Positions 38,280 through 63,395 of a DNA stretch of 64,000 nt are shown here, in pieces (the first letter of the stretch is position 1; every line of letters begins with the position of its first letter). The position numbers and the translations under genes are program-made. Origin of the DNA: Branchiostoma floridae (lineage: Eukaryota; Chordata; Leptocardii; Amphioxiformes; Branchiostomatidae). The stretch lies in the NCBI RefSeq assembly GCF_000003815.2, contig NC_049991.1, forward strand, positions 18,566,037-18,630,036. The letters are read 5' to 3'. Under the pieces are notes generated by a model. That model made no database searches, had not been told where the DNA came from, and saw only the letters and a program-made list of their open reading frames with translations.

Positions 38280-40060
38280 TCAGTAATCCTGACTTGCCGA
38301 GCTCAATTTTTTTCCCTGCCTGATCGACGTCTTCTTGGGCAGCAGTTGAGGCAAGATGTTTGGTAACACTCCGCCCTGGGCAATGGTCACTCCAGACAGC
38401 AGTTTGGCCAGCTCCTCGTCATTGCGGATGGCCAGTTGTAGGTGCCGGGGGATGATCCTATTCTTCTTGTTGTCGCGGGCAGCGTTACCGGCCAGCTCTA
38501 AAACCTGAAGAACACAACAACAAGAAAGAACAGTCGACGTAGTACTGTAAGTTCATTTAAGTTCGCGAGATTTTTAAGTTCGCGTATTTCGCTGAGACCT
38601 CTGCTTCGCGAAGTCATCTACTCGCGAACATGCATGTTCGATATCGTCCCCCTCCCCACATCCTCCGTCCAAAAGATCCAGTCTCTGCAACTACGTGTTT
38701 ACTATGATAGCAACTTATACCAATGACAAGACTCAATTGATAACAGACTATTTATTCTTTTCAAACCGAAATAAAAGTTGATTCAACACATATACGATAC
38801 ATGGAGTCATTATTGTATAGGAATGTGCCACTGGCGACCGGAGGAAAATTAAAGAAACATGTCGGCTTTGTTTACTAACAAAACTTTAACGTACACGCCG
38901 TGACATGGCTGCGATAATAATTTACTTAGTACATTATCCTAGTTTAACTAGATTTCTACAAGTTACAAACAAAACAAAAAATAAAACTGAGTAGTATTGG
39001 TTTTTACAAATACAAGTAATGGCTATGGAATTACAGCAACTAAGATTTACAACAAATATTATAATAGCGGGGAAATTTTCACGACTAGAAACGTGGCAAC
39101 AAAACTCCGCTTACATGTCGAAAAAAAAGACATTCGTTTCATAATTCTGAGTTAGAACTGCTGTAAATATAGGAGGGATAAACTCTTCACCTTCTTGTGT
39201 ACAATTTGTGTCCACAAATTACGCTGAAAGTTTAAAACTTAGCGTCGTCTTTCACGCCGAAAATATTTCAAAATGGCGCCCGCGTCGCTTGTGTTTGGCG
39301 TGGGTATCCCGTCAGCCTGTGCGGCAAATGTGATTGCGACATATCAGAGGTCATTGGCCCTGTTGCGTTCCGTGCGCTATCGTCAAATCACGGCCCAAAC
39401 AGGCCTAAATGAGCCAACAATGAGACAGTGGCTTGGTAGAAACACATTTTTTATTTGAGTACACCAACTTTAGACATTGTTTGAAGGGTAACTATGAACT
39501 CTAAGGCGTAAATGGCACCTTTGACGGCATGACTAGTGTTGCGGTGTGGGTGGGAGGGGGGCACTCGCTACCGTCATAGTACCGGAACGTAACTTTTGAA
39601 AAATAATTGAAACACCCGCTCGCGAACTCAAAGATCTCGCGAACTCCCGATTTGCTCAAACTCGCGAAATTAAGTGCTCGCGAACATAAATGAACTTACA
39701 GTAACCTTAGCAGGAATGCGAGAAAATCTGGAAGACGAAGCAAGCAGAGGGATGTGTATGCATGTGGCACTTTCTACATATGTAGAAGACACGAAAAGGT
39801 CTGCCAAGCAGGACTAAGAATCACTCCCAAACACACATAAGCAAAGCACCAGTGAAGGACAACAACAACAACAACACCTCGGCGGTGAGGTACTCCAGCA
39901 CGGCCGCCAGGTACACCGGGGCGCCCGCTCCAATCCGTTCGGCGTAGTTGCCGTTCCGCAGGAAGCGATGGACTCGCCCCACCGGGAACTGTAGACCGGC
40001 CCTCGCAGACCTACTCCTGGGTTTCGAGCGAATTTTCCCGCCTTTTCCCCGTCCGGACAT
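38280..40060 (-). CDS. H2AX: Histone H2A.X, two exons
   Basis: Nucleosome core histone of the variant phosphorylated at DNA breaks. Exon 40060..39878 encodes MSGRGKGGK to LEYLTAE, including [20 protein letters not shown]. Exon 38504..38280 continues [14 protein letters not shown] to the end. The join is phase 0 with donor GAG|gtgttg and acceptor cttcag. Total is 135 aa. The last residues SASQDY carry SQ-[ED]-aromatic, the H2A.X motif whose serine is the gamma-H2A.X phosphosite. Odd points: NRIIPRH for the usual [17 protein letters not shown] for [21 protein letters not shown] in the docking region, and a tail with [10 protein letters not shown]. Core H2A histones usually lack introns, so an intron and the missing 3' stem-loop point to a replication-independent variant. 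Confidence 0.9.
38545..39701. mobile_element. TIR element in the H2A.X intron
   Basis: CTGTAAGTTCATTTAAGTTC plus GCGAG (38545-38569) matches the reverse complement of 39677-39701 at 24 of 25 positions. Both ends are flanked by TA, as in Tc1/mariner-type insertions. Extra inner copies of CTCGCGAAC occur near each end. No transposase frame is seen. An ATG-initiated 61-codon frame at 39273 is unassigned. Confidence 0.8.
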
Positions 40061-41490: not shown

Positions 41491-42504
41491 ATACAAGAAT
41501 GACGGATGATGTATCAGCAAATCAATCAATCTTTATTCAAATCAATATGCCGTACACAATTTAACAATGCCGTAATCTTTCACAATGCAGAAAAAGTCAC
41601 TTTTATATAACTAAAAGTCTTCAAATTTCCATACTTTTTTGTTCTTTCCCTAAAATGTTTTTATCTGTGATTATACAGTTTCATTTAGATACGATAATAC
41701 GTGTTAACATAATGTCAAAACAACATGTTTGCTGCCAAGGTACTTATAATGAAAACTTCCTCTGAGCAAGCCATTTCGAAGTGTAGCATGAACTGACGAG
41801 ACTTTGAATTTTAACGTTTTTCATTCAGACTTTTAAAAGTGCTTGGTCTGTTTTCGATGTTGTTTATTTCTTGCTGATATTTTTATACTTCTACTCTTTC
41901 TTCACAAGCTTTCATGCAATTTTAGTTAAGCACAAGCAATATTTACAAGCAGTAGTTTTAGTCTTCCCCGGTACTTTTGTTACATCGCCGTGGTGGTCAG
42001 GCTTGGGTGCCTCTAGGATCCTGTGCTCTATACGGACTGGGAATAGAGTGTTCTGTTCTTACACATAAGAGTTTTGTAGATGACCAAAATCTTAATACGA
42101 GACACATGTGATATCACTTGACATTAAGCTTCCTTTGTTAAGATCAACCATAACAATCATAACTGCCCTTTTAGGTATTCAAAATACAACATGGTACTCT
42201 ATCACACCTGTTGCTATTTGGGCACGTTTCAAATATATACTGTAACATTATTTAACAGAATAATTAAAGCATTCATTAAATATCTATAAAACTCACACAT
42301 GGCAAATATACTGTACAAAGTATTATCAGAGCAGTACCTCCTGTACTGATGGCAGAGGTGGGGACATCATGATACATATCATGGACTAAATCACTAAGAT
42401 CATGCATCATATTAAAACATATCAAACAGTCATGGTGGAGCGATCACTTTTGTCAACATTTTGCCATGAGTCCTGAGATGACCAGACGAAATTTTCATCC
42501 CCCA

Positions 42505-43350
42505 GGGGTCATAGAAATCTCATTGATCTTTCCTCCCATCATGGGAACAAACAGCTACTTTATATCCTTGACTTCCAATGAATTAAGTTCACGCAATATT
42601 TACAAGCAGTAGTTTGTCTTTCTGACCGATATTTCATCAAGTGACACAAGTATCATTGCAAAGTTATTTACAAGTTTCTTTGTTGAGCATAATTGCTATT
42701 GTCATCAACATCATCCAGTCATCATCATCTATTTTAGACAGTCGAAAATAGAACTTGGTGATCTAACACACCAAGTCCTAAATTTTCTTGCTATTTGAAA
42801 ATATTTCAAAGACCAACACACAATAAAAGTTTTGACATTTGGCATCTATAAGATGTCTGGACGTACGTAACCAAGAATATCTACTGATAACAGAAGTAAA
42901 CTCATCTTAGGTCTTGGACCAAGTTTTGACAAGCACAGTCACATAAACAAGCAAAAAAATTAAATGATCAATCTAACGTTATGTCATGGAAGGAACCTAC
43001 TCCCCATGGCTCCAGAGATGTCCACACCAAATTTTCATCCTTGAGTGCTCATTAATGAGCTTTCGTTTACATCATGGGAACAAAGGCATTTTTTATCATT
43101 GACTTTTGATGAATTAAGTTCATGAAATATTTACAAGCATTGGTTTGTCTAAAATCTCATCAAGTGACAAAAGTATCATATTCATTGCACAGTTATTTAC
43201 AGTTTTCTTTGTTAAGCATAATTGCTATCATCATCATCATCATCATCATCCAGTCATTATCATCTATTTTAGACAGTCAAAAACAGAACTTGGTGATTTA
43301 ACACAACAAGTCCTGAAAGTTCTTGCTACAAATATTTCAAACACCTACAT
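42505..43350. repeat. Diverged direct duplication downstream of the polycystin gene
   Basis: About 42505-42810 recurs at 43046-43350: CATCATGGGAACAAA, GATGAATTAAGTTCATG, ATATTTACAAGCA, TTTCTTTGTTAAGCATAATT, ATCTATTTTAGACAGTC and AGAACTTGGTGATTTAACAC. A shorter third piece is at 41925-41960. The second copy has an ATC microsatellite at 43226-43250. Part may be polycystin 3' UTR. No coding exon is seen between 41500 and 43730. Confidence 0.7.
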
Positions 43351-43730
43351 GTACACGTGTACATAATGATAGGTAAATGTACTTAAACATAGACTTTTGA
43401 AAACCAGAACAATTACTGATAATAGAAGAGACACATCTTTGACCAAATTGATACTATTACACACATGAACACGCAAAAAATTCAGATCTGATGACAGACA
43501 CATTGCCTGGACTCCTAGACTTAATTGTTAAACATATCATACACAGAAATACACAAAAAAATTGATCGGTAATCATGTAGGGATCAGTTCAACATTCATT
43601 TTGTCACCCCTCCGTAGACGACCACACCACGCTAGTCTTGTGCTTTAATTGATGCCCATCAGGAGAACAAAGAGCTATCCTTGATTCTTAGTGTCAATTA
43701 GTCGTTTGAACACGGCAGAACAGTTTTTTC

Positions 43731-44802
43731 TTACACGCCGCAGTAACCACATGCCAATTTCCCATCACTGAAATGGCTGACTGGCAGGCAGTTGACGTGA
43801 AAGATCCTCCGGCATGCCTTGCAATTCTGCATCCTTCCCAGACGCTCCCCCTGCTGGCAGTAGCAGACCAGTGAGATTTGCTGTGCCTTGGTTGGACCAA
43901 CCTTCCTGCAGCTGGTCTTACGTGGAAATGGCGTGAGTTTGCCTTGTTCGAAGCACGTCTCCAAATGGCTCCTCATCTTCTTAACATCATACACAACCCT
44001 GCTCACGTCTTGCCCCTCTGCGATGTCCACAGCCCAGGCGATGGCAAACAGCCCGCAATCAAAGACGTTCTCCTGACGCTGTATGTCCGGTAAGATGACG
44101 GTTAGGACTTTTCTGGCTTGGTCAGCAAACGCGGCATATGACTGGTAAAGTTGGATTTGCAGAGATGGAGTCATGGCAACTCCGAGGCTGTCATACAGGC
44201 GCACCTGTCCGCCTGCACAAGATGATAGGACCCAGTGCTGGCTGCCGTTGTGGTGGATTTGTAGCCCTGTTCCTGTAATCTTGGCAAATCCGTCTTCACA
44301 GTGACCAACTGCAGGCGCCTCCAGTCCTTGGAGTGCCGGGTACTGGCGGCGAAGCAGAATCTGGACAGCCTGGATGTGGTTGTCTGTCAGCATCTCGCCG
44401 AATGCCAGAGTCGCCTTGTCATGGATGCTCAACTTGACACTTGGCCACTCCACTTTACGCTCCTCGGTGTGACGAACAAGAACAACCTGAGCAAAACGAA
44501 CTCTCCTGGTTGATGTCTTGTCACTTTTCCCACCTTTAGATAGGACAGACTTTATTTTTCTGACTTGTTTGGTTTGGTGGCTTTCCGGGGTGTCCTCCTC
44601 TTTTGCCGGGGACCTGGATGTCACCACCACTGGAGTCTTGCTCTCGGAGTGGGTCCCTTGACTGCCACTGTCTGTGCAGATGGTCGGGGAGGCAGCGCGG
44701 ACCTTGATGACGCGGTGGCGAAGTTCCACTGCTGCAGCATCGGGGGCATCTCTGACAGTAGGAACAAACTCCGGCTCTGCAGGGAGGTCTGCATCCTTCA
44801 TC
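43731..44802 (-). CDS. Last exon of the polycystin gene: Ulp1/C48-like protease domain plus PHD finger
   Basis: 357 codons from 44802 to the stop ending at 43731; acceptor tatcctcacag, phase 2. Numbering from M at 44801: residues 1-100 are low-complexity and charged. 101-290 resemble Ulp1/SENP cysteine proteases, with H189 (GSQHWVLSS), D204 (RLYDSLG), Q243 and C249 (QENVFDCGLFAIAW), a complete H-D-Q-C set. The lead-in MLTDNHIQAVQILLRRQYP is a pattern I associate with transposon-borne Ulp1-like domains. 313-354 is a PHD finger: C313-x-C315, C327-x2-C330, H335-x2-C338, C351-x2-C354 (C4HC3). The frame starts with ATG, so it could also be a separate intronless transposon gene, but the upstream exon enters it in frame. 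Confidence 0.8.
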
Positions 44803-45431
44803 CTGTGAGGATAGAAGTGTTAACGCTTCTGAAGTTGTGCTGTCCAGAAACATAAAAACACTCGCACACTCACTCGCACACTCACACACATGCACACACA
44901 CAAACACACAAACGAACAAACACACAGTAGGAACAAACTCCGGCTCTGCAGGGAGGTCTGCATCCTTGATCCTGTGAAGATGGAAGTGTTAATTAGCTAA
45001 TATCTTTAGAACCTCTTGTGTAGAGTGATTGCATCAACAATTATCACCATCAACTTTCCAGATTATCCTGGCTAGAACTAGAGTGTCACAAGCTCATACC
45101 TTTGCCACAAGCTCTACTAGTCGAAAATCATAACCAAAGCATATCCAGAACACAAGCTATAAAAACTGGAAGCTCCCCTGCATTACCATAGAGTACCACA
45201 AGGAGGCCAATTATCAAAGTTGACTTTTGTTTTCCCAACCTTACTCATACTCAACCTAATATCATACAGATCCATCCACAGCTTTTGCTCTCTGGAATCA
45301 TACAAACACGCACACACACAGCACACACACACTCACACACATAATATGCACACACACACACTCACACACGCATGGCACACAGACACACACAGACACAGAC
45401 ACACACATACACTCACACACACGCACGCGTG

Positions 45432-45470
<39 letters not shown>

Positions 45471-48400
45471 CCAAACAGTGCCATAGACATAAACCAATTG
45501 GTGAATGTAATTGTTGTGCCAGGAAAATCACTCCTTGCATATTTGAGGACATCTGATCAATCTTGACTGGTATTTCTGTATTTCTTGTAAGATGTTGTAC
45601 TTACTTAAGGTTGAAGAGCGACTGTCTCTTCAGCCACAGTTTCTCCACTTTAATCTCGACCTCGATCAGGCTGTCATGTAGAGTGTCCATGGAGTCGTCA
45701 TCTGAGCAGATGTAAAATTAATGTAGTTTGTAAGTTTTCTTTAGTACGTACCACATAAAATAAACAGTGATTTGATCACAATGTGCAAATTAAAATGTGA
45801 AGCCCAGCTAGCTGGCAATGGGCCAAGGATGCCAAAGAGTAAGTTAGTAAGGATAAACAGGATATGAAATAACTTTGGACCTTACTCCTGGCCATCCTTT
45901 CATACCTGCGCATGCATTACAGCCCAATACAATGATTAAGCAAAGGTGCTGGGTTCAAGTCCCACACTCGTACCTAATATATACTAAAATGGACTGTCAA
46001 CTCAACTAGAAAGAGCTAATGCAGTAATATCAGGCACTTATTTCAATAACCTGTGACTTTGCAAAATTATCAAGACCCAAAAGATGATAGACTTTATTGT
46101 TTGGTTGTGCATTGTCTAGATGTAAAAAAAAAAAACATGCACATGAACCTGTGGCTGGCGCTTTCCAGAAGCCGAAGAAGGCCGTGAAGCGTTCCCACAA
46201 CCCCTGGATGAAGTACCGGTCCTCTTCAGGCATGTCGTGGTTCCGCATCTCGGGAAGTGCGCTGTCGATGATCGCCATGGCGATGTTCATCAGCACCAGG
46301 AAGATGATGCTGATGAAAGCGAAGAAGAAGATGGGGCCGAGGATGGGGGCTGCCTCCTGTAGCTGGTAGTAGTAGAAGTTTCCAAGAGACATCTGGAACA
46401 ATGTGGAGAAGGACTTGCTGATGGAGCTGAAAGATAACAAAAAATCAAATCGTTGTAATGAGGACAATTGGCGTGTTTTACTTCCAAGCACTCAGAATCC
46501 ATGTCCTTTTGTTAAAACGAGACATCATGATATTAAATTTTTTACCCACATTGATACAAGAATATGTTTTCTTACCTGTACTCTGTCACAGTAAGGCCGA
46601 ACATGAGATATGCGTAGACTCCGAAAGCTGACATCCAGAAGAAAAAGTAGAAGATGAAGGAGGAGAACTCTCCCGCCATCCCTCGGAACACGGACATCAG
46701 CTTGGCGAGGAACGGGTTGAACCTCAACAGCCGGAGGAGCTTCATCATGTTGACAAACGCCAAGAAGGCCAGGAACCAGCCGTAAACCTGGCTTATGTTG
46801 ACCGCAGATCGGAAATGGTGGACTTGATCTTTAAGAGAACAGTATTGCATATCATAAGTACAGTGTTAAATAACCACCTTGTAATACAATCAACTTGGCA
46901 TGCTTTCCAACATTGACAACATTGACATTGAGGGTTAAAGTGAAATTTTCATGAACATGTAAATACTACAGTAACTGTAACAATGCTTTTGCTGCTTTTG
47001 CATTGTGTTACAAATGTACCTTTCTCTTCCTTGATCGCCACCAGAGCCCTGGAGCTGTAGATTGCCTTAAAGCCATACAAGGCAATGACAATCAATGCCA
47101 AGAAGAAGTTGAAGATTTCAATAATATTCCATGCCCCCTTCAGGTAGGCCAAGCCGACTGTGCGTGCAGTTTTCACCTCTCTCCACAGAGTGTAGAGGAG
47201 AATGATGACATAAATGATTTCCAACAAGGCGTAGATGTACCCGATTGTACCAGGCCGTTGATGGAGTCGGAAGGTCTGCACGTGGTGACGGGAGAAAACT
47301 CCGGCCATCTCGGAGAATTCAAACACAACCGTCAGCGATGTGAACAGATCAACGTTTCCATTGTAGAGCATCGCTTCCAAGAAGATGACCCTCGTGTGCT
47401 TGTCGATCCAACGGTTTGCCATCAGGTCTGCTAGGATGCTGCGCATCTCGTCTGCTGATTTTCCAAGGTGCAGACCAAAGCCGTCTCCCCAATAGTGCGT
47501 TGTCACACCGTAGATGGGGAGACTGGGGTCGTTATTGGGGAGGTAGATCCATCCAGGGGCTGCTGATTCCACAGCTGATGTATTCCTGACCCTTTTCCAC
47601 CCCTCCTCAAATGCTCCGGTCTCCTTGGCGTGTTCATCATACGGTGATGAACATTCCTCAAACAAGTGCTGAATTGCCACAGGCACCACGCACGGCCCTA
47701 GTATGACAGGAAAAGAAAACATAATATACAAGTCAGTCGCATTCCCTTCACTTTTTTTAGGTACAAAATGTAGATGTCTTTCAAACATAGATCAATCCCG
47801 AATAGTTAGATAATGATCCTTTGAATTTCTTGAACGTAGCTTTCCACACTATTTCTTTTGGTATGGTAAGGCTGCTTGATTGTGGAATAACATTTGCAGC
47901 TGCCATGTAAGCCCTCGGCAAGTGTTCCATGAAAGTAGTTCCACCCACCTGGCTTTACACGGCCTTGGATCAGGCTAGGTGGGTAGACCAGGACTGTCTG
48001 CATGTCAGCTGTGAAGACCTTCTCAAACCAGCGGGGCTTGTCGCCATTGTAGGAAGTCTCTGGGTAGAAGCTCTGCAGAGCGGTCTCATTCAGCCAGGAC
48101 CAGAAGGTGAGAGGATCATTTACCTGTGGAGAAACAACGCCATGTGAGTTTATTTATTCCACAAAGTAATTGTAGATTCCTCATCGAGGGTGCAAATAAT
48201 GAATGTTATTATGATAATAATAAAAATCACTATCTATTTGTGTCAAGATGGCTTTCCACTGGCTTCAAATGTTTTCTAAAGTTTCACAGTCTACAGTTGC
48301 CGGGTAGACCCAGGAAACCTTGGCTGGAGTATGTCAGGAAAGACATCAAGGTGTACTGCGGCCTTGACAGTGTGAGCCCGCTAAACAGGGCCGCTTGGAA

Positions 48401-51400
48401 GCTGCCAACGCTAGAATCAGGGATCTTAGCAGCAAAATAATCAAATACTGGATTACTATGTAACAGTACTACATACTACTACCACTGCTGCCCACCACTG
48501 TGTCAGGGACCCACACAGCAGTTTAATCATTAAATACTTGATTCTACTATTACTACTACTGCATAATGTCTGATCAGATATATGTAGAGATTTAAAGATC
48601 TATCCCAATGCAAGGACCTGGTGTAAGGAACTCACGTCGTCCACAGACTGCAGGAAGGTGTTGGTTGTGCTCAGTGTCTGATGGAAACCCTCTGTGGTGT
48701 TGTGGTGCTCAATGGCGATGCTGAGCACGAGCAGGAGGAAACAGCAGAACCACGCGATGTCCCACACGGTTTCCCCAAATCTCCTGTCCCTGCGCTGCCT
48801 CATTCTTGCTTGTTTGATGTTGGCAAGGGACCTCATTGAAAGTCGCTCCATCTTCCTCCTCATGCGAAATGCATCGCCTTTAGTAAGCAAGAAAAATATG
48901 AAGAAGTCTATATGGTCTATGTGTATTTGTTTGAGGGTAAAAAATTACTCACAACCTGGACAAAAGACTGAAGCACGAAGAAATAAGAACAATTCAGAAT
49001 GCAGGGTATGGCTGGGAGCACACTGAAACTACACAAAATGGCTTTCTTTAAACAGCTTCGAACATGTGGTAACAAATTGTGCACAGTTTACTTGTTCGCG
49101 GTAATAGTTCTTTTCCACAAACTGATGAGCTGACACTTACAGTTGAAGTCTGTCTCCCTTTGTGAAGACACCATGCTAGCTTTAATCAGAGCGGGGCCCC
49201 GCTTCTTTTTAAACATCTTCTTGACGGCTTGCGTCTTACCAACAAAGCAAGTCACGATGGTGAGGAACAATATCTGTAAGATAAAAGCATTAGTTGGTGG
49301 AGTTTCTGACAGGTTGTGACTTCCGCATACAAAATGTTGTGACTAGGTCAGGTTCTATTAAACTAGCAAGAAATTGTGTTGATGGCCAGATACCTTATAC
49401 CACATCATGCAGCATACATTAATTCATGATTCCACCAGGTGAGGTGCCATAATAACGCCACCTCAAAAAACGTTGTTATAGAGGCCTTCTCAAGATTGTT
49501 TTCAACACCTAAATATCTGAATTGTATTACATTTAAGACATGTAACATTCGGTGTTCAAGACAACCTTAGTAAAACCTCTATACTTGTCTAACGTTTTTT
49601 TTTCAGGTGGAGGTATCATGGCTCCTGGTGGAATTATGAGAGTCGATGTTACAAGAAAATTCAACAGAGAACATGTCCTAATACCTTTCCTGGTTGCATG
49701 ACGAAGATATCCGCCCAAAATGCGATGAAGTACACAGACAGCCACCTCTCGGATTTGTCCTTGCCCCAGTACATGCTGTACAGCACCGTGAAGACAGCTG
49801 ACCCCACGGCAGACAGCACCACGAGCACCCAGGCAACGTAATTGCACCAGTGTGGCAGGCCCTTGGCTTGTCCTTGCTGCGTGGGTGCCTCTGGTGTGTC
49901 ACCTGTCTCCATGTCTCTGACCCGCCGGTCGCCCTTGTTGCTGGGTCGGCTGTACTGGAACAGCAGGACTATGGCCATGATGACGGGAAGGCAGGTGAGG
50001 CTGGCCATGATTCCCGTGTAGACTCCATTCAGGGTGAAGGAGAATGGCCCCAGGTTGACGGCCTGCACAACCTGGGTTTTTATTTCGTCCCTTAGCCACA
50101 TGGCGCTGGACACCATGGACACAAGGAGGAGACTCAGGCAGCAGCCGAGCCTCTGGCTGCGGGTGAACGTGCCACCTGGAAAGGAAACACAATTGACACA
50201 TTAATCAGCAAAACTAGTTGCTATCAAATGGAAGCAACAAAACCAGCAACAGACATTCATCAACCGTAACAGTTGCTCAAATTTTGTTCAGTAAAACTTC
50301 AGACAATCGTTGATATACATGATTGTATAGTCCGTTTAGATCCATCTAAGATAAAGATAAAGTGCAGAAATAGCAAAATAACTGTTACCTTCAGGTGTGA
50401 AAGCGACGGACAAAAAGAGGTGCTCCTCTATCAGATTACTCCGCAGAATTGCCGGGAACAGGAACCCGAAGGATCGCAGATCCTGCTCAGTGGCGACAGG
50501 AAAGGTCTTCACCACCTGCCCGTCCCCGCGGTCGGCTGCCAGCCACTCATTGCAGAAGAAATAGGACCTGAAGTTCCAACAAAGAGAAAACTGACCTATA
50601 GTGACATATCATAAAATATTGTGTAATTTCAGTCCCTCAATGACTCTGTGTTAATCTTTTATTATGTTTTCCCTGGTGAATAGATAAACAGACAAACAAA
50701 AAGGACCCTAGGCTTGTATAATCATGATTGGATGAAACTAAGACAGCCCCAAAAGCTCAAATTAACTCACGTTTTGCCAGTGGTGACATCCTCCACTGCT
50801 GCTCTGTCCACGTGCCACGATGCACGGCTCCCCTCCCCACTGTTGTCGTGCATGAGCTGCAGCTGCTCCACGTTACCCAGCTGTTCCACTATGCTGAAGG
50901 TCAGGGTCACCTGGCTGCCCTGGGTAAAAACCTAAAACAGCAACAAAATTCCACCTGTTAGGAACTGTCGTAAATGATTGTACTATAATTGAAGTCTTCA
51001 GTGGATACAGCAGCAGCAAAATAAATGATTGAGGATACACTTTCAGGGGAAAGTTGGGCGATGGAATGATTACATTAGAGGCCATTGCTAAATTTGACAT
51101 TCTAACCTTCTCAGCGATGTTGACCACTCTCACATCGGAGTTTGCGGCGTCTCCGACAAGCTTGAAGGTAACGGTAGACTCTGTCCCAGCATGCCTAGCT
51201 GCACCTGTCCAGACGAGAAGGCGGTACAGGTAGCCGTTCTGAAGGTCGTCCAACCTTACAGCATGATGTAACTGTAACAAAGTGTGAAAAAATAGACCAT
51301 AACAATAAATGTTCACATAATGTGATGATAACAACATGACACTGACATTTCCCAGCACACACAGTATAGTCTAATACTGCATGAAGACTGGGTACTTTCG

Positions 51401-54400
51401 GTAAGTCGCAAGTAATTGGTGAATCACACTTCGTGACCCTGCCCTTGTTGGTTAAGATTTATGAAGCACTAAATTGTGATAGACATCGCTCTTTTGGGCT
51501 AGCCTGCGAGCCCTTTTTATACTTATTTGTCTTTTCCTGTCAAACCAAGGCCACACCTATTTTATTTGATGTTTCTCGGACTTCCCGACACTATTTTTCC
51601 GATTTGAAAAAAAAAAAAATTTCAAATGGATGGCCACACCTCATGTTGACAAGATTTCACTGCCTCTCCTTTGATTCTCAAATTATAGATGTTCCTCAAA
51701 TTCCAGTAGCTGTACATGCCTATTTTGGATGGTACATTTATCATTTTTCTTCAAACTTTGTACTTTGCTAACAGGGACCCTCTAAATGCTAAAATGTTTT
51801 CATTTCTGTTGTGGAACTTGAGTAAGCCCCTCGATCTCTCCAACCCCTTACGTTTTGCAAAAGTTTTTAAACCGACCGACCCAATTTTTTTTTTTTAAAT
51901 CCGAGAAACAACAAATAAAATTGGTGTGGCCTTATGAATCGATAAATTTTTTAATGAATACTGGAAAACTCTAAGACTTACTCTAACTGACCTGTGGGAT
52001 ACCCTTTATCCATTGTATATGTACGTATTGTAAACAGGGCAATTTGGAGATACAATTAGGTAGCCGGATGGTGGTTTCAGATTGCAATTATTTCAAAACA
52101 TTGCTACAGTTTGAAACCAATATATTCTTTTACTTGATATCCCTAAATACCCTGTTTTAAAATGCAACGGATATAGATTACTCCACAGATGTAGGTGATT
52201 TCATCATTATGATAACAGCGTAATAAAATCATNNNNNNNNNNNNNNNNNNNNNNNNNNNNNNNNNNNNNNNNNNNNNNNNNNNNNNNNNNNNNNNNNNNN
52301 NNNNNNNNNNNNNNNNNNNNNNNNNNNNNNNNNNNNNNNNNNNNNNNNNNNNNNNNNNNNNNNNNNNNNNNNNNNNNNNNNNNNNNNNNNNNNNNNNNNN
52401 NNNNNNNNNNNNNNNNNNNNNNNNNNNNNNNNNNNNNNNNNNNNNNNNNNNNNNNNNNNNNNNNNNNNNNNNNNNNNNNNNNNNNNNNNNNNNNNNNNNN
52501 NNNNNNNNNNNNNNNNNNNNNNNNNNNNNNNNNNNNNNNNNNNNNNNNNNNNNNNNNNNNNNNNNNNNNNNNNNNNNNNNNNNNNNNNNNNNNNNNNNNN
52601 NNNNNNNNNNNNNNNNNNNNNNNNNNNNNNNNNNNNNNNNNNNNNNNNNNNNNNNNNNNNNNNNNNNNNNNNNNNNNNNNNNNNNNNNNNNNNNNNNNNN
52701 NNNNNNNNNNNNNNNNNNNNNNNNNNNNNNNNNNNNNNNNNNNNNNNNNNNNNNNNNNNNNNNNNNNNNNNNNNNNNNNNNNNNNNNNNNNNNNNNNNNN
52801 NNNNNNNNNNNNNNNNNNNNNNNNNNNNNNNNNNNNNNNNNNNNNNNNNNNNNNNNNNNNNNNNNNNNNNNNNNNNNNNNGTACCTTCCTTACCTTTCTT
52901 TTATCTTTACGCTCAGCGATCTTGATCACGGCTGATGTCAACGAGAACAGACAGAGCGCCACAATGATGGTTGTCAAAACGGCACCGTTGTCCACCAAAT
53001 CACTGAAATTCAAGGCCCCGAAGTCAAGGGTGTTTGGCGGAGTGGCGAAGTCAAGTCCGAAGGCCGTCAGATGGTTGCAGTGGCAGATGGTGCTGGTAAT
53101 GGTGGACTGCTCGCTTATCTGTGGAAAGCAGGAATGAGAGTCAAGTTGTTAGGATCACATTTTGCTGGTACAAACACTGGTTATTTTATTTATTGAAAGA
53201 CGCCAGCAACCTTGAGAGTCTGTTCACTGCTTTAGGCATTATTGATATACAGTCAAACCTGTCTATAGTGGCCACTCAAGGGACCGGACAAATTATAGAC
53301 AGGTGGCCTCTGTATAGAGGTGGCAACTTGTAGATAAAATACCCAAGGGACCGACAAAAAGTGGCCACTATGGACAGGTGGCCCCTCTGTAGAGGTGGCC
53401 CCTAATACAGGTTTGACTGTACAGTCAAACCTGTCAATAGTGGCCACTCAAGGGACCGGACAAATGTGGCCACTATAGACAGGTGGCCTCTGTATAGAGG
53501 TGGCAACTTGTAGATAAAATACCCAAGGGACCGACAAAAAGTGGCCACTATGGACAGGTGGCCCCTCTGTAGAGGTGGCCCCTAATACAGGTTTGACTGT
53601 ATTAAGAATATATTCAAGCCATGGATTTGAATTGCTTTTCTTGGCATATTGGCCTCTTTTCACTATAGCACAGATTGCGAACATTATATTGCAATTTTAG
53701 TTGTTTCGCCAAAACAAACATTTGACAACATTAACATCCAAAACTTTGTCTTTTGTATGTGGCCATTAAAAAAGTATATTGAGTAAACGTAGGTCATTAC
53801 AATTGTAGTTCCTGTGAATACTGAAAAGTAATTTAAAAGTTCTCCTGTAAATGTCAAGAAATGTACACACCGTGCAGCCGTCAGTCCTCCAGTCTTCCTG
53901 GGTCTCGCTCCAGTAGATGCAGCCCAAACGGACCCACTGGATCCGGTAGGCATAGAAGTCATTGCTGTCTGACTCCTTCATGTCAGTTTTCGTTTCCATG
54001 TCACACTCGGTCACTGGACCTGACAAAAGGAAGTTCGCACAGGTTCTGATAAGTTTATAACTACTGAGATTTTGCCAGTGATTCCTGTTGTCAACATCAA
54101 AAATGCAACATGTATCTTATTTTAAAGATATTCCAAACAAACAAACAAACAAACAAAAGCACAACATTGCTCAGTGGAACATCAACACTTTCTATTAAGT
54201 ATGTGAAATTCACATTATATCTTACACTAGACTGAGTGTAACAGTTTAGATTCTGATAAGTTTATAACTACAGAGATGTCGCCAGTCTGACTCCTATCTT
54301 CACTGTGCGCTCATTGGTTGATCCTGAATCACATGATTCTCACAACCATATAAGTACAAGGGATGATCACCCTACTGCCTCTTGTTGGATCCATCCGCAA

Positions 54401-60400: not shown

Positions 60401-63395
60401 ATCATAAATGGATGATGTATTTTACTTCAAAGAGATTTGAAACAATCCAAATCACAACAGTGCACAGTGGGAAATCAATACTCTAAAAACTCAACACTTT
60501 CTGTAAGAAAATACCAAAAAAATCTCTAAAACATTTCAAACAAAATATACTTTTCCATCACAACAAAACAAAGTTTAATTATGATATCATCATTGACAGT
60601 ACAATATCACTTCATCTGATACAGATATTCACCTCAGTCTTATATTCTGTCAATCAGTCCAATTTTTATGAAAATACTCACCAAGTACTTGGACCTTGAT
60701 GTAGTAATCCGCAGGACCATCTCCTCCCAGGATGAATATCGTTGCCTCTGTCTTCTCTGTGTTTGTGTCTTCATCGCCACTGAGAGATTTCATCAAGGCA
60801 CACTCCTCAGGTAGGATGTACGTCTCCGTGGACATGTTGTAGTTTTGGTCATCAGGGCGGCCGCCGTACCTGCCCCACACGCCGTAAACCACGCTTGTGT
60901 TCAGTGGGGTGATGGTGACCAGGAATCCTTCTGCGGTGCTGTTGAGCTTTAGCAAATGGTAGCTTGAACTTTGGTTTCCTGGTGCAGGGAAGGTGATGGT
61001 TGTCGTCGCTGGTTTGTTTCCAGAGCCGCCCGGAATGGTGATGTTAAAGTCTTCAGTCAGGTTGTTGAAGGCCACGGGGATGTCGTTCTGCAGGAGTGAC
61101 AGTTCCATAACAGACGAACGTGCCTGGTACTCCCCGCGCCCCCAGGTGAAGGGGTTCTGTTGAAACTGCGTCAACTGATAAATAACAAAATCTTAGACTA
61201 GATAATTGACTTTTGAAACAAGTGGCCAGTATCAAAATTATTCTACTACTTACATATTCTATTCGTATTGGTAACTGTATTCAGGAATTTGTACCTCACT
61301 CATTCACGAAAAACATGATATATTTAATATGTAGATGAGTGAGTTGTAACAGGAACCTTCTTCACAATGACCTTATGTAATATGTAAAAATGCTGAGCAA
61401 TAACTCACGTAACTGTATCAACTTTCATATTGAGTCATATTTTTCAATGTGTCAATAGATAAATTATAAAGTTGGATAAAATTTATTGTATCAATTGTAA
61501 AACAGTTACTGCAACGTTGTTACTAACAGTTAATAAAAAATCTAATGACAAAAAATCAAAGTTGGAAAACAGACAAAAACAATCCTTAAAGAAAATATCA
61601 AGTTTAATTATTGAAATCATCACAAATTGTGACCGCGTGGCGCAGTGGTCTAAGCATGTGCGGATCTGCACCGAGAGGTTGCGGGTTCAAATCCGCCTGT
61701 CGTGCCACCGATCTTGTGCCCTTGGGAAAGGCACTTTACACGACTTTCCTCACTTTACTCAGGTGAGAGTGAGTACCTGGCTTTGGCTGGGGCCGTCCCT
61801 CGGATAGGACGTTAAATGGAGGTCCCGTGTATGGGGAGAACCACACCCCATGCACGTTAAAGAACCCCCACACGTGCGATGGTGCTATGTGGATGGAGCA
61901 AACCATTCTGTCTGGAGTTGGTGATTCACTACAAATCACCCGGACGGAGGCCTGGCGAACCTTCGTGTCGTATCAGCCACATGGTGATTACATCATTCAC
62001 CATGCCCCGGAGAGGAGATAGGCGCCGCCAGGGGACTAAAATGCCTATTGATACAGCACAACATGTTGTGCTGCCCCTACGGCTGATTAAAAGGCTATGG
62101 GACGAATGAAAAATGAAATGATCATCACAAATATAATATATATAAACGAAGAGAGACATTATTCGTTAATGATAAACCAGGACATGACATGACTCGTACC
62201 CTTATAGCGACGTTGTGCGGTGTATAGTCCGGGAACAGCGCTGCTTTAGATGGAAGATGAAAGCTCCCATCCTCCATCTGCACGACCCGGCCTCCAAACT
62301 GGTCACCCCAGACCCTCTCCGCACGGAGAGCAACCCCTCCCCTCTCGATGGTGACTGCCGGGGCTCCTGGACTCATGGAGCCCATAATGGCGTCGAACAG
62401 ACCATCCAGGACCCGGCGGCTTTCCTGGACATTTCTTCGTTTCTGTAAGTAACCGTAAAGACAATATTATGGATGAGCTACACCAGCTAATATGATCCAG
62501 GTATTTCCTCAATAACACATTCTATTAGACAAGACGTAGCACGCAGTATTTGTGCAATTTGTTCTGAAGAAAAAAGCTGTTTTATGAGAGATGCGAATCA
62601 TTTAAAAGGCAGGAAAAGAGTAAAATGTACTTTTGTTTCGTTTTAAAGACATATAGATATTTTAGTACATAGTAAGGTTAATTTGTTTATGTGATAGTAC
62701 GTAGTTCTGAAATCTTTTAAGTATGTGGGATTGAATGTTTCTAAGTTTAAGCCACACCATCACACATCTTTGGTGCATATATTGCATACTTCAGAAGCGC
62801 ATGTTTTGTTCAACATTAAATACAAGTCAAGTCAAGTCATGTACACATTAATATGTTAAGAAAATCAAGGAAGAACAGCTTGCAATGCATGTGATTTAAA
62901 TCACGATCTACGATGGAAAATGGTCTCTAACAAAAAACTAAAAATTAACTTCAAGCATCAAACGAAGCATAATGACTTTTTGTTACCTCGGCTTGTTTCT
63001 CCTCTTCCCTTTCTTCTGCCTTTTCAAGGCGCTCCTTTGGAGAGAGACTCTGGTCTTCCTCGAGATCAGATGCAAGCTTCCCATCATCCTCTTGTGTATC
63101 TCTCTCTGGTTCCTCAAGCAGAGAACCGACCGACTCCACCAGAGCTGCAGTAGAACAGAAGCAAATGTTACCAAAGTAATGAACACAGGAAACCAACGGA
63201 CTCCTCCAGAACTAATATGCATGATTAACACATGCACAATAAGACAATACAGATGTGGACAACTGAAATAGTTAGTACTGCAGAGTAATAGTTGGATTAC
63301 TTACATCCTCCCACGGACTGGACAGTGGCCGGGTCAGACATGTCCAGTTTGTCCAGGTTGCTGGTGATGGACTTCAAAACACCTACGGCGATGTC
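43731..63395 (-). CDS. PKD1-like: Polycystin-1-family protein with C-terminal C48-like protease and PHD finger (5' end outside window)
   Basis: Exons in transcript order: 63395..63305, 63144..62987, 62442..62200, 61174..60682, 54019..53871, 53118..52894, [gap 52880-52233], 51271..51107, 50931..50771, 50567..50389, 50175..49685, 49273..49141, 48877..48636, 48123..47949, 47697..47020, 46828..46576, 46426..46149, 45701..45605, 44802..43731. Every visible junction is GT-AG (acceptors ctAG/aaAG included) and phases agree. The part after the gap is 3924 nt (1307 aa plus stop), and the part before it 453 aa. Order: REJ/GAIN-like ectodomain, GPS with CIYWSETQEDW and CHCNHLTAFG, first membrane span, PLAT (YLYRLLVWTG, LMHDNSGEGSRASWHVDR), further spans, TOP domain, pore, short charged exon, protease, PHD. 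Family role: large membrane receptor/channel subunits of cilia and sperm. The extra C-terminus is discussed separately. The paralogue (PKD1, PKD1L or PKDREJ) cannot be fixed from this part. Confidence 0.85.
44870..44982 (-). repeat. Second copy of the last-exon acceptor region, with CA-rich spacer
   Basis: 44927-44990 repeats 44751-44815 (GTAGGAACAAACTCCGGCTC, GGGAGGTCTGCATCCTTGAT), including a usable acceptor cttcacag. Entered in phase 2 it gives IKDADLPAEPEFVPTV and then reads through the CA-rich spacer into a different frame of the last exon, losing the protease domain. Confidence 0.75.
45295..45470. repeat. CA/GT microsatellite
   Basis: CACA-rich run in the intron between the small charged exon and the last exon. 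The open frames here are artefacts of the repeat. Confidence 0.9.
45605..45701 (-). CDS. Small charged exon linking polycystin pore and protease domain
   Basis: It encodes DDSMDTLHDSLIEVEIKVEK and then LWLKRQSLFNLK, a probable short amphipathic or coiled-coil helix like those after the last span of polycystins. Acceptor tctgctcag, donor AA|gtaagt. It accepts phase 1 from the pore exon and delivers phase 2 to the last exon. Confidence 0.8.
46149..47697 (-). CDS. Polycystin channel exons: TOP domain, S1-S6-like spans and pore
   Basis: Exon 47697..47020 holds the extracellular TOP domain (PGWIYLPNNDPSLPIYG, THYWGDGFGLHL) and two spans (GYIYALLEIIYVIILLYTLW; IFNFFLALIVIALYGF). Exon 46828..46576 adds YGWFLAFLAFVNMMKLLRLL and FIFYFFFWMSAFGVYAYLMF. 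Exon 46426..46149 has the pore helix FSTLFQMSLGNF and last span ILGPIFFFAFISIIFLVLMN. Against the LGDF-like filter of PKD2, this one reads LGNF, so the acidic residue is replaced. Whether it conducts is unknown. Confidence 0.85.
48255..48440 (+). mobile_element. LINE 3' fragment in a polycystin intron
   Basis: The plus-strand frame reads LPGRPRKPWLEYVRKDIKVY and, further on, SVSPLNRAAWK before a stop at 48440, the usual end of non-LTR retrotransposon ORF2 (GRPxxxWxxxVxxDL...DRxxWR). It is antisense to the host gene. Confidence 0.7.
48636..50175 (-). CDS. Polycystin transmembrane exons between PLAT and TOP domain
   Basis: Exon 50175..49685 contains spans LLLVSMVSSAMW, ASLTCLPVIMAIVLLFQY, YVAWVLVVLSAVGSAVFTVL and the FIAFWADIFVMQPGK signature. 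Exon 49273..49141 completes a span (ILFLTIVTCFVG) and a basic loop. Exon 48877..48636 has basic residues then DIAWFCCFLLLVLSIAI, the span before the TOP domain. Confidence 0.8.
50389..51271 (-). CDS. PLAT domain exons of the polycystin gene
   Basis: Exons 51271..51107, 50931..50771 and 50567..50389. PLAT hallmarks are present: GYLYRLLVWTGAARHAGTES, VTFKLVGD, LQLMHDNSGEG followed by SWHVDRAAVEDVTTGK, and FFCNEWLAADRGDGQV. The N-terminal edge probably lies in the 648-N gap. PLAT domains bind lipids and proteins at the cytoplasmic face. Confidence 0.85.
51547..51933. mobile_element. MITE with about 35-bp inverted ends
   Basis: AAGGCCACACCTATTTTATT..GTTTCTCGGA at 51547-51580 pairs with TCCGAGAAAC..AATAAAATTGGTGTGGCCTT at 51899-51933. 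No coding capacity. Confidence 0.75.
52233..52880. other. Assembly gap (648 N)
   Basis: Run of N in the intron-exon stretch between the first transmembrane exon and PLAT; one or more polycystin exons may be hidden. Confidence 1.
52894..54019 (-). CDS. GPS and first transmembrane span of the polycystin gene
   Basis: Exon 54019..53871 ends with GPS part one (CIYWSETQEDWRTDGCT). Exon 53118..52894 has CHCNHLTAFG, where self-cleavage in GAIN/GPS proteins falls between L and T, then TIIVALCLFSLTSAVI as membrane span. The cysteines, tryptophans and HLT cleavage triad are all intact, so cleavage is predicted. Confidence 0.85.
53250..53599. mobile_element. Two tandem Tc1/mariner-type MITEs
   Basis: 53250-53419 and 53422-53599 are about 170-178 bp each and nearly identical. 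Each begins CAGTCAAACCTGTC and ends ACAGGTTTGACTG, with TA before, between and after. Confidence 0.85.
55282..55381. other. Assembly gap (100 N)
   Basis: Run of N within the composite element. Confidence 1.
56467..59660. repeat. Satellite-like array of about 125-bp units
   Basis: Units carry GAAACGGCGCGCATGTGCGG, GTGTTTGCTGCACTGTTAGT, GTGCGATCACTGAGTAGCGT and TCTTTCCGCACATGGCGGGT. Spacing between successive CATGTGCGGG copies is mostly 126 bp. Units diverge toward 59000-59660. The open frames seen here are generated by the repeat. Confidence 0.9.
59680..59779. other. Assembly gap (100 N)
   Basis: Run of N at the edge of the 125-bp array. Confidence 1.
60047..60385. mobile_element. 339-bp short relative of the 5.7-kb element
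   Basis: The first 110 bp equal 54294-54406 almost exactly, and the last 75 bp equal 59968-60042. It sits 4 bp after the large element and looks like an internal-deletion derivative. Confidence 0.8.
60682..63395 (-). CDS. Ectodomain exons (REJ/GAIN-like) of the polycystin gene
   Basis: Exons 63395..63305 (DIAVGVLKSITSNLDKLDMS), 63144..62987 (acidic, coiled-coil-like), 62442..62200 (LDGLFDAIMGSMSPGAPAVT, VALRAERVWG) and 61174..60682 (LTQFQQNPFTWG, TTTITFPAPG, GFLVTITPLNTSVVYGV). These match the helical then beta-rich layout before a GPS in polycystin-1 proteins. Several NxS/T sites occur. The coding sequence enters the first listed exon from beyond 63395. Confidence 0.75.
61625..62106 (+). 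mobile_element. Long tRNA-derived SINE
   Basis: Head CGTGGCGCAGTGGTCTAAGC with B box GCGGGTTCAAATCCGC, then CCCTTGGGAAAGGCACTTTA, then the tail GTCCCTCGGATAGGACGTTA, GGTCCCGTG, CACGTTAAAGAACCC. It is the most complete family member here and lies in a polycystin intron. Confidence 0.8.

What the first reader, a model, noticed from the sequence alone, without database searches (positions are those of the whole stretch)
43731..46426. Polycystin channel apparently fused to a Ulp1-type protease and PHD finger
Seen directly: the pore exon (46426..46149) leaves phase 1, the small exon (45701..45605) takes phase 1 and leaves phase 2, and acceptor 44802 takes phase 2 into a 356-residue frame that ends in a C48-like domain and a C4HC3 PHD finger. 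Known: polycystins normally end in a coiled-coil or short tail; Ulp1-like proteases cut SUMO or related modifiers and also occur in transposons; PHD fingers read chromatin marks. Inference: a transposon-derived protease-PHD module has been exonised as the cytoplasmic tail of a membrane receptor-channel. If GPS cleavage or tail release occurs, it could send a protease/chromatin reader to the nucleus. I know of no such architecture.
Basis: partly seen in the sequence, partly recalled or inferred. Interest (0 to 1): 0.92.

Follow-up and report, generated by a model that had tools for sequence, protein, structure and literature searches.

The report
Ion-channel receptors with captured transposon protease
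Lancelets carry many polycystin-type membrane receptor-channels whose inner tail is a SUMO-protease-like domain plus a zinc finger of a kind otherwise seen in jumping genes, and two different polycystin lineages seem to have gained it, so a cell-surface sensor may directly control the removal of protein modifiers.

The parts
60682..61174 (-). Most upstream exon of the model built here (extracellular part); the gene may start further upstream
   Evidence: tblastn with P0029, 69% identity; AG/GT borders
53871..54019 (-). Exon before the GPS exon
   Evidence: tblastn with P0029, 52%
52894..53118 (-). GPS exon (CHCNHLT) and start of first membrane span (span read by eye)
   Evidence: Pfam GPS 22.7 bits, cut-off 22.5
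51107..51271 (-). PLAT domain exon 1
   Evidence: tblastn with P0025/P0029, 64%/60%; their PLAT scores above cut-off
50771..50931 (-). PLAT domain exon 2
   Evidence: tblastn with P0025, 85%
50389..50567 (-). PLAT domain end and following loop, exon 3
   Evidence: tblastn with P0025, 78%
49685..50175 (-). Membrane-span exon
   Evidence: tblastn with P0025, 75%
49141..49273 (-). Loop exon
   Evidence: frame and splice borders
48636..48877 (-). Loop and membrane-span exon
   Evidence: tblastn with P0019, 72%
47949..48123 (-). Polycystin domain, first part
47020..47697 (-). E1: Polycystin domain and first spans of the channel
   Evidence: Pfam Polycystin_dom 98.1 and PKD_channel 105.4 bits on E1-E4
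46576..46828 (-). E2: channel spans
46149..46426 (-). E3: pore exon
45605..45701 (-). E4: short exon, coiled-coil-like by eye; donor GTAAGT, in which an unspliced read meets TAA at once
44803..45604 (-). Intron 4, holding a second acceptor (exon start 44971) from a 169-bp tandem duplication
   Evidence: family D4; frame
43731..44802 (-). E5: terminal coding exon, linker + Ulp1-like domain + PHD-like finger + stop
43914..44444 (-). Ulp1/SENP-like domain (tail residues 120-296)
43734..43889 (-). C4HC3 PHD-like finger (tail residues 305-356)
   Evidence: 8 ligand codons in 26 of 26 close copies, in 4 of them partly or wholly behind a stop; pLDDT of residues 311-356 is 46-61 in the first and 59-84 in the second model

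Best explanation
This is the 3' part of a polycystin-1-like receptor-channel gene of a lancelet family in which a mobile-element-type protease-PHD module has become the cytoplasmic tail. Shown by sequence: one open spliced frame, recurring junctions, paralogues and multi-species gene models, and a predicted Ulp1 fold. Inferred from trees and exon comparison: two polycystin lineages gained the module, once as a new terminal exon after the coiled-coil exon (window type) and once appended inside the terminal exon (P0030 type). Proposed mechanism (inference): the tail is a membrane-tethered Ulp1-like isopeptidase held near the pore by the coiled coil and linker. It trims SUMO or a related modifier from the channel complex or nearby proteins, with the PHD-like finger binding a peptide or the substrate. 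The receptor's outer domains or channel opening would set where and when it acts. Copies with Cys-to-Ser or Asp-to-Asn changes would be binding-only versions.
For: 15 exons, all introns GT-AG, one 1596-residue frame. 27 of 41 tail places lie 512-2072 bp downstream of a pore exon, same strand. Of 20 loci fetched whole, 17 show E1-E5 in order, L016 has part of E3 plus E4 and E5, and L021 and L024 have tail only; six more fetched as short pieces all show E3, E4 and E5 (L032-L037). E4 donors at the 18: 11 GT, 7 GC; E5 acceptor AG seen at 17, L019 not readable. Of 44 proteins found with the tail as query, 41 are Branchiostoma proteins with a PKD_channel domain, 3 are mobile-element proteins. Of 37 window-type entries read (P0002-P0007, P0019-P0026, P0036-P0058), 34 keep His, Asp, Gln and Cys. 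Pairwise dN/dS medians: Ulp1 part 0.43 (322 of 325 pairs), 0.31 within the window's clade (53 of 55); PHD part 0.48 (316 of 325); pore exon 0.32 (271 of 276). AlphaFold and SENP/Ulp1 match. Two lineages: p-AU 2.9e-97; channel 25% versus tail 51% between groups, 68/74% and 78/83% within; terminal exons of tail-less L050 and L051 share the start of the P0030-type exon and then stop.
Against: No transcript evidence was available. Public models are predictions; lancelet domain novelties have been blamed on prediction errors (PMC4967905, passages), and a later paper shows one wrong lancelet model that joined a PKD_channel domain to chordin (PMC6071037, passages). No public model identical to this locus turned up in three searches; the nearest tail, P0002, is 90-93% identical. 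Three window-type channel models lack the tail domains (P0027, P0028, P0029). Four of the 24 fused window-type tails have an in-frame stop (L013, L014, L019, L020), and in L035 linker and Ulp1 part lie in different frames. C249 is Ser in L025-L027 and in P0023, P0024, P0057; Q243 is Tyr in L020, L021, L024, L035; H189 is Leu in L024; 11 of 12 P0030-type proteins read have Asn for D204, the twelfth (P0066) a gap. The linker's dN/dS (0.49, 166 of 325 pairs) is about that of the PHD part, so constraint on the finger beyond its ligands is modest. The second acceptor at 44971 could drop the tail here. Substrate unknown.
Confidence: 0.85

Rival explanations
1. E5 is a separate gene or a transposon remnant that merely lies downstream of polycystin genes; the fusion is an annotation artefact.
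For: E5 starts with ATG right after the acceptor base at this locus, and models P0003, P0005 and P0007 begin there. Three channel models end before the tail domains. Prediction errors are known in lancelets, one involving a PKD_channel domain (PMC4967905, PMC6071037, passages). Two close tail copies have no polycystin exon recognised upstream (L021, L024).
Against: The pairing and order recur at 27 places, with E4 donors at 18 of 18 and E5 acceptors at 17 of 18 loci in the same phase. The first residue is Val, Leu or Ile in 8 of 29 models read (P0022, P0023, P0024, P0026, P0036, P0054, P0056, P0057), so the ATG is not strictly kept. No transposase-like frame or strong terminal inverted repeats were seen beside E5. 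Models of other species carry the junction.
Confidence: 0.06
2. The protein is made, but the tail is a non-catalytic binding module: a Ubl-binding or scaffold tail.
For: Asp-to-Asn in 11 of 12 P0030-type proteins read; Cys-to-Ser in 3 of 26 genomic copies and 3 of 37 window-type entries; Gln-to-Tyr in 4 of 26 copies. dN/dS of 0.43 is high for an enzyme (my judgement).
Against: The window copy and 34 of 37 window-type entries keep His, Asp, Gln and Cys. In the first alignment, which includes the distant relatives, H189, Q243 and C249 are invariant and D204 nearly so.
Confidence: 0.3
3. One ancestral fusion, then repeated loss of the tail, instead of two acquisitions.
For: The two tail groups join before any other sampled Ulp1 domain (support 85/85, not strong).
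Against: The P0030-type channels nest among tail-less channels. Tail-less L050 and L051 share the start of the same terminal exon and then stop (L052 showed no match to it). Tail divergence is far smaller than channel divergence between groups but not within groups. The one P0030-type locus read (L029) has coiled coil and tail in one exon, while the window type has an intron between them.
Confidence: 0.15

Closest known systems
Polycystin-1-like proteins (PKD1L family)
   Same: GPS, PLAT, Polycystin domain, PKD channel; coiled-coil-like exon after the pore (by eye)
   Different: About 356 further residues with a Ulp1-like domain and PHD-like finger; known PC1 tails are short (PC1 tail fragments of 17-34 kDa, PMC10063565 passages)
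Ulp1/SENP proteases (MEROPS C48)
   Same: Predicted fold; His, Asp, Gln, Cys; top VIA-align matches SENP5, SENP3, NEDP1, Ulp1
   Different: Below the Pfam cut-off, 15-20% identical to these four, joined to a multi-span membrane protein, followed by a PHD-like finger
Ginger1 and Mutator-type transposases with C-terminal Ulp1 and PHD (PMC2836005, passages)
   Same: Ulp1 and PHD together; a SWIM-Ulp1-PHD frame of the same genome is 34% identical
   Different: No transposase in the polycystin genes; host splicing and host paralogue family
Host-transposon fusion genes (transposase captures; recalled, no call)
   Same: A mobile-element domain spliced on as a new exon of a host gene
   Different: Here the captured part is the protease-PHD module, not a DNA-binding transposase, and the host is a membrane receptor-channel; apparently gained by two lineages

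Membership tests
Polycystin-1-like receptor-channel | PKD_channel and Polycystin domains above Pfam cut-offs | tested here: met
   105.4 bits (cut-off 22.4) and 98.1 bits (cut-off 23.6) on E1-E4
Polycystin-1-like receptor-channel | GPS motif | tested here: met
   22.7 bits, cut-off 22.5; only just above
Polycystin-1-like receptor-channel | PLAT domain | tested here: met
   By homology only: window exons 60-85% identical to P0025/P0029, whose PLAT scores 39.7 and 40.7 bits, cut-off 23. Window frames of single PLAT exons scanned alone gave no PLAT hit
Polycystin-1-like receptor-channel | Eleven membrane spans | not tested
   -
Ulp1/SENP protease (C48) | Ulp1 fold | tested here: met
Ulp1/SENP protease (C48) | His-Asp-Cys triad and Gln | tested here: met
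   H189, D204, Q243, C249 at this locus; altered in some copies
Ulp1/SENP protease (C48) | Pfam PF02902 curated score | tested here: not met
   11.8 bits, cut-off 20.7; so I call it Ulp1-like, a divergent relative
Ulp1/SENP protease (C48) | Cleavage of SUMO or a related modifier | not testable with these tools
   -
PHD finger | C4HC3 ligand pattern | tested here: met
   8 of 8 ligands here; ligand codons in 26 of 26 close genomic copies, but behind a stop in part or whole in L013, L014, L019, L020
PHD finger | Pfam PF00628 curated score | tested here: not met
   13.8 bits, cut-off 24; the best polycystin tail scanned, P0059, 19.3; the related SWIM frame L030 reaches 28.2. So I call it PHD-like
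PHD finger | Histone-tail binding | not testable with these tools
   -
Autonomous transposon at this place | Transposase or reverse transcriptase frame and terminal repeats around E5 | tested here: not met
   None recognised by eye among the open frames of at least 90 aa beside E5; only two weak inverted pairs, 70% and 76%, in 42000-46600

The most novel reading that the evidence does not exclude
Lancelets turned a mobile element's modifier-protease and chromatin-reader module into the signalling output of sensory receptor-channels, twice: an external cue or calcium entry would switch a tethered SUMO/Ubl protease, and a proteolytically freed tail could carry protease plus PHD finger to chromatin, a one-molecule route from cell surface to the modifier state of the nucleus.
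Probability: 0.2. Interest if true: 0.96.

Novelty: new variant of a known kind. Interest (0 to 1): 0.83.

Why it matters
Polycystins are central to kidney disease and sensing, and how their tails signal is not settled. Here a natural experiment extended that tail with an enzyme-like module in a whole gene family found in several lancelet species and, by my trees, gained by two lineages. If the tail is active, a receptor-channel and a modifier protease are one molecule, which would make the coupling directly testable. It also shows capture of the accessory protease-PHD part of mobile elements, rather than a DNA-binding part, by a membrane receptor.

Tried and rejected
Transposon standing alone: rejected, no flanking element parts recognised. 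Sequence search of solved structures with the tail: nothing significant (best E 0.14), so a fold comparison was used; the second, better model was not searched again. Non-coding RNA in 42000-47000: none at gathering score. Tail-only loci L021 and L024: no polycystin exon recognised upstream in the stretch fetched, but L021 has a long N run there and L024 a LINE-type frame (by eye), so inconclusive. C14 pore without tail: a long retroelement-type frame (by eye) lies directly downstream, so its lack of a tail says nothing. The 140-residue frame upstream of the SWIM-Ulp1-PHD frame in L030 had no Pfam match, so calling that element Mutator-like rests on the SWIM finger and recall. The broken E5 of L035 was not pursued. 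Paper searches for the architecture. None of the listed titles described it, but searches listed only 15 of 37, 10 of 25, 10 of 109 and 12 of 65 papers, and only open-licence papers are held. Passages of PMC4284660, PMC4967905 and PMC6071037 hold no mention of Ulp1 or C48. One search used a faulty tail query (several proteins run together) and was discarded; one search repeats it correctly. One search stopped on an error; one search repeats it.
Full report
What is there. On the minus strand the pore exon (46426..46149), a short exon (45701..45605) and a terminal exon (44802..43731) join in one frame. Extending upstream with guide proteins gives 15 exons from 61174 to 43731, with AG before each and GT after each but the last, and one 1596-residue frame ending at the stop. 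It holds a GPS motif (22.7 bits, cut-off 22.5), a PLAT domain by homology, and the Polycystin and PKD_channel domains well above cut-off. The first exon of the gene was not sought; the frame is open at its 5' end.

The same thing elsewhere in this genome. The genome is Branchiostoma floridae: P0003, named as B. floridae, is 100% identical to the translation at L015, and P0025 to L036. A six-frame search with the tail gave 57 matches. I merged 4 and dropped 12 short fragments just downstream of full tails, leaving 41 places. A search with the pore exon gave 73 matches, of which I used the best 47. In 27 of the 41 places a pore exon lies 512-2072 bp upstream on the same strand; 24 are of the window type and 3 of the second type described below. 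Of 20 loci fetched at about 10 kb, 17 have all five exons E1-E5 in order, L016 has part of E3 plus E4 and E5, and L021 and L024 have the tail only. Six more, fetched as pieces of about 2 kb, all have E3, E4 and E5. At the 18 loci the E4 donor is GT in 11 and GC in 7, and the E5 acceptor AG is visible in 17, always leaving phase 2. The remaining 14 of 41 places have no pore exon near: L021, L024, C12:11893554, frames of mobile-element type or unread.

Elsewhere among species. Three protein searches were made. With the tail region of the model as query, 44 proteins passed 1e-5. Of these, 41 are Branchiostoma proteins with a PKD_channel domain (up to 2555 residues, many with GPS, PLAT and fibronectin domains), one is an endonuclease-RT-RNase H protein, and two are Helitron-type proteins of an insect. 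In one search a Mytilus reverse-transcriptase protein also carried the Ulp1-like domain. P0010-P0018 are unnamed proteins. The search needs shared exact words, so absence elsewhere is only as good as that. Against the fusion, three window-type channel models lack the tail domains (P0027, P0028, P0029). P0028 matches locus L035 at 98%, where linker and Ulp1 part lie in different frames.

Is it under constraint? Pairwise Nei-Gojobori values on 26 close tail copies give medians of 0.43 for the Ulp1 part (322 of 325 pairs used), 0.48 for the finger (316 of 325), 0.49 for the linker (166 of 325) and 0.32 for the pore exon (271 of 276); within the window's clade the Ulp1 part has 0.31 and the linker 0.56. 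Pairs are not independent, and single pairs reach 0.86 (Ulp1) and 1.54 (finger). All eight ligand codons are present in 26 of 26 copies, but L013, L014, L019 and L020 carry a stop before some or all of them. Of the protease residues D204 is kept in 26 of 26, H189 in 25, C249 in 23 and Q243 in 22; His, Asp and Cys together in 22. Of 37 window-type protein entries, 34 keep all four residues and 35 show all eight ligands. So the family is mostly intact, with some decaying or probably non-catalytic members.

Two lineages. A second set of models (P0030 and relatives; L029 in this genome) has a Ulp1 part 44-54% identical to window-type tails but a channel only 22-27% identical (84 pairs, 14 window-type and 6 second-type rows). 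Within each set channel and tail diverge together (68/74% and 78/83%). The channel tree used 14 window-type rows, 7 second-type rows, 4 channels without a tail nearby and 3 outgroup rows, a part of what was in hand. In it the second set nests among tail-less L047, L048 and L049, and holding all tail bearers as one clade costs 102.7 log-likelihood units (p-AU 2.9e-97). Some branches there are long (the program warns of L046 and the outgroup), but identities agree: L047-L049 are 66, 59 and 47% identical to the second set and 24-26% to the window type. Tail-less L050 and L051 have a terminal exon whose start is 57-67% identical to that of the second set over about 30-40 residues and which ends after 78 and 70 residues; L052 shows no match to it. 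In L029 the same exon runs on into the Ulp1 domain. In the tail tree the two tail groups are neighbours with moderate support (85/85). I read this as two acquisitions, from the same kind of mobile element or by transfer of the exon between lineages. The tail-less state of these loci rests on about 3.9-4.9 kb downstream of the pore exon. In the second set 11 of 12 proteins read have Asn at the Asp position, P0066 has a gap, and only P0059 shows all eight finger ligands.

Source. Ulp1 with PHD occurs in a Ginger1 transposase, and Ulp1 in Mutator-type transposons including lancelet ones (PMC2836005, passages). In this genome L030 has a 593-residue frame with SWIM and PHD above cut-off and Ulp1 below it, and L031 a frame with YqaJ and Ulp1 above cut-off. 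PMC6446971 (passages) lists SWIM fingers in many Mutator groups but could not detect Mutator transposases in B. floridae. The closest relative outside the polycystins is 43% identical to the window's Ulp1 part (P0010, unnamed), so the direct donor is not identified.

How it may work. Shown: gene structure, family, predicted fold. Inferred: a membrane-tethered modifier protease or modifier-binding tail. The outer domains and the channel could govern its position and timing. In mammals PC1 C-terminal fragments are reported in nucleus and mitochondria (PMC10063565, passages), which makes release conceivable. GPS cleavage, however, leaves the tail on the 11-span fragment and is not by itself a release step.

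Confidence (my estimates). Fusion is a real gene structure: about 0.93. Window-type tail catalytic: about 0.6. Two acquisitions rather than one: about 0.85. Nuclear action of a freed tail: about 0.2.

Noticed in passing
window 44755-44823 and 44924-44992: A 69-bp stretch holding the E5 acceptor is duplicated 169 bp upstream (96%), giving a second acceptor (exon start 44971) that would lead into another frame and remove Ulp1 and PHD; of 20 fetched loci only the window locus showed a second match to the exon start.
   Followed up: partly
window 42464-43428: Duplication of about 530 bp in the 3' flank of the gene (pairs of 73-92%).
   Followed up: no
window 44493-44504 (tail residues 100-103); L010-L016; P0019, P0036-P0040, P0042-P0045: The otherwise loose linker keeps an RVxF-like motif (RVRF, RVSF, RVTF, RVHF, RVCF, KVSF), a possible phosphatase-1 docking site by recall: in 8 of 11 window-clade loci (L017 has KIKF, L018 none, L019 not readable there) and in none of the 15 other close copies.
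   Followed up: partly
L020, L022, L023, L025-L028: The intron before the tail uses a GC donor in these seven loci; models with the residues CR at the junction agree.
   Followed up: no
G000 C9:2487880, C12:17111475-17112838, C13:18712591, C13:20068470, C13:21161158: Short degenerate copies of the C-terminal Ulp1/PHD part lie within 2 kb downstream of five full tails (12 fragments).
   Followed up: no
G000 C12:17114638-17129162: The pore exon is split: its halves lie about 14 kb apart, suggesting a large insertion.
   Followed up: no
L031; also C8:16146282 and C10:21666561: A frame with a YqaJ exonuclease-like domain, two cysteine-rich finger-like stretches (by eye) and a Ulp1-like domain; matches with nearly equal scores on three chromosomes suggest a mobile element.
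   Followed up: partly
L024 1084-2830: A LINE-type frame with a PHD-like stretch and an endonuclease (by eye) lies upstream of a tail copy without recognised polycystin exons.
   Followed up: no
window 38280-38552, minus: Open frame that reads like the second exon of an intron-bearing histone H2A gene (by eye).
   Followed up: no
P0008, P0009, P0030, P0031, P0059-P0066: In the second polycystin lineage the catalytic Asp is Asn in 11 of 12 proteins read and only P0059 shows the whole finger, hinting at a switch to a non-catalytic tail.
   Followed up: partly
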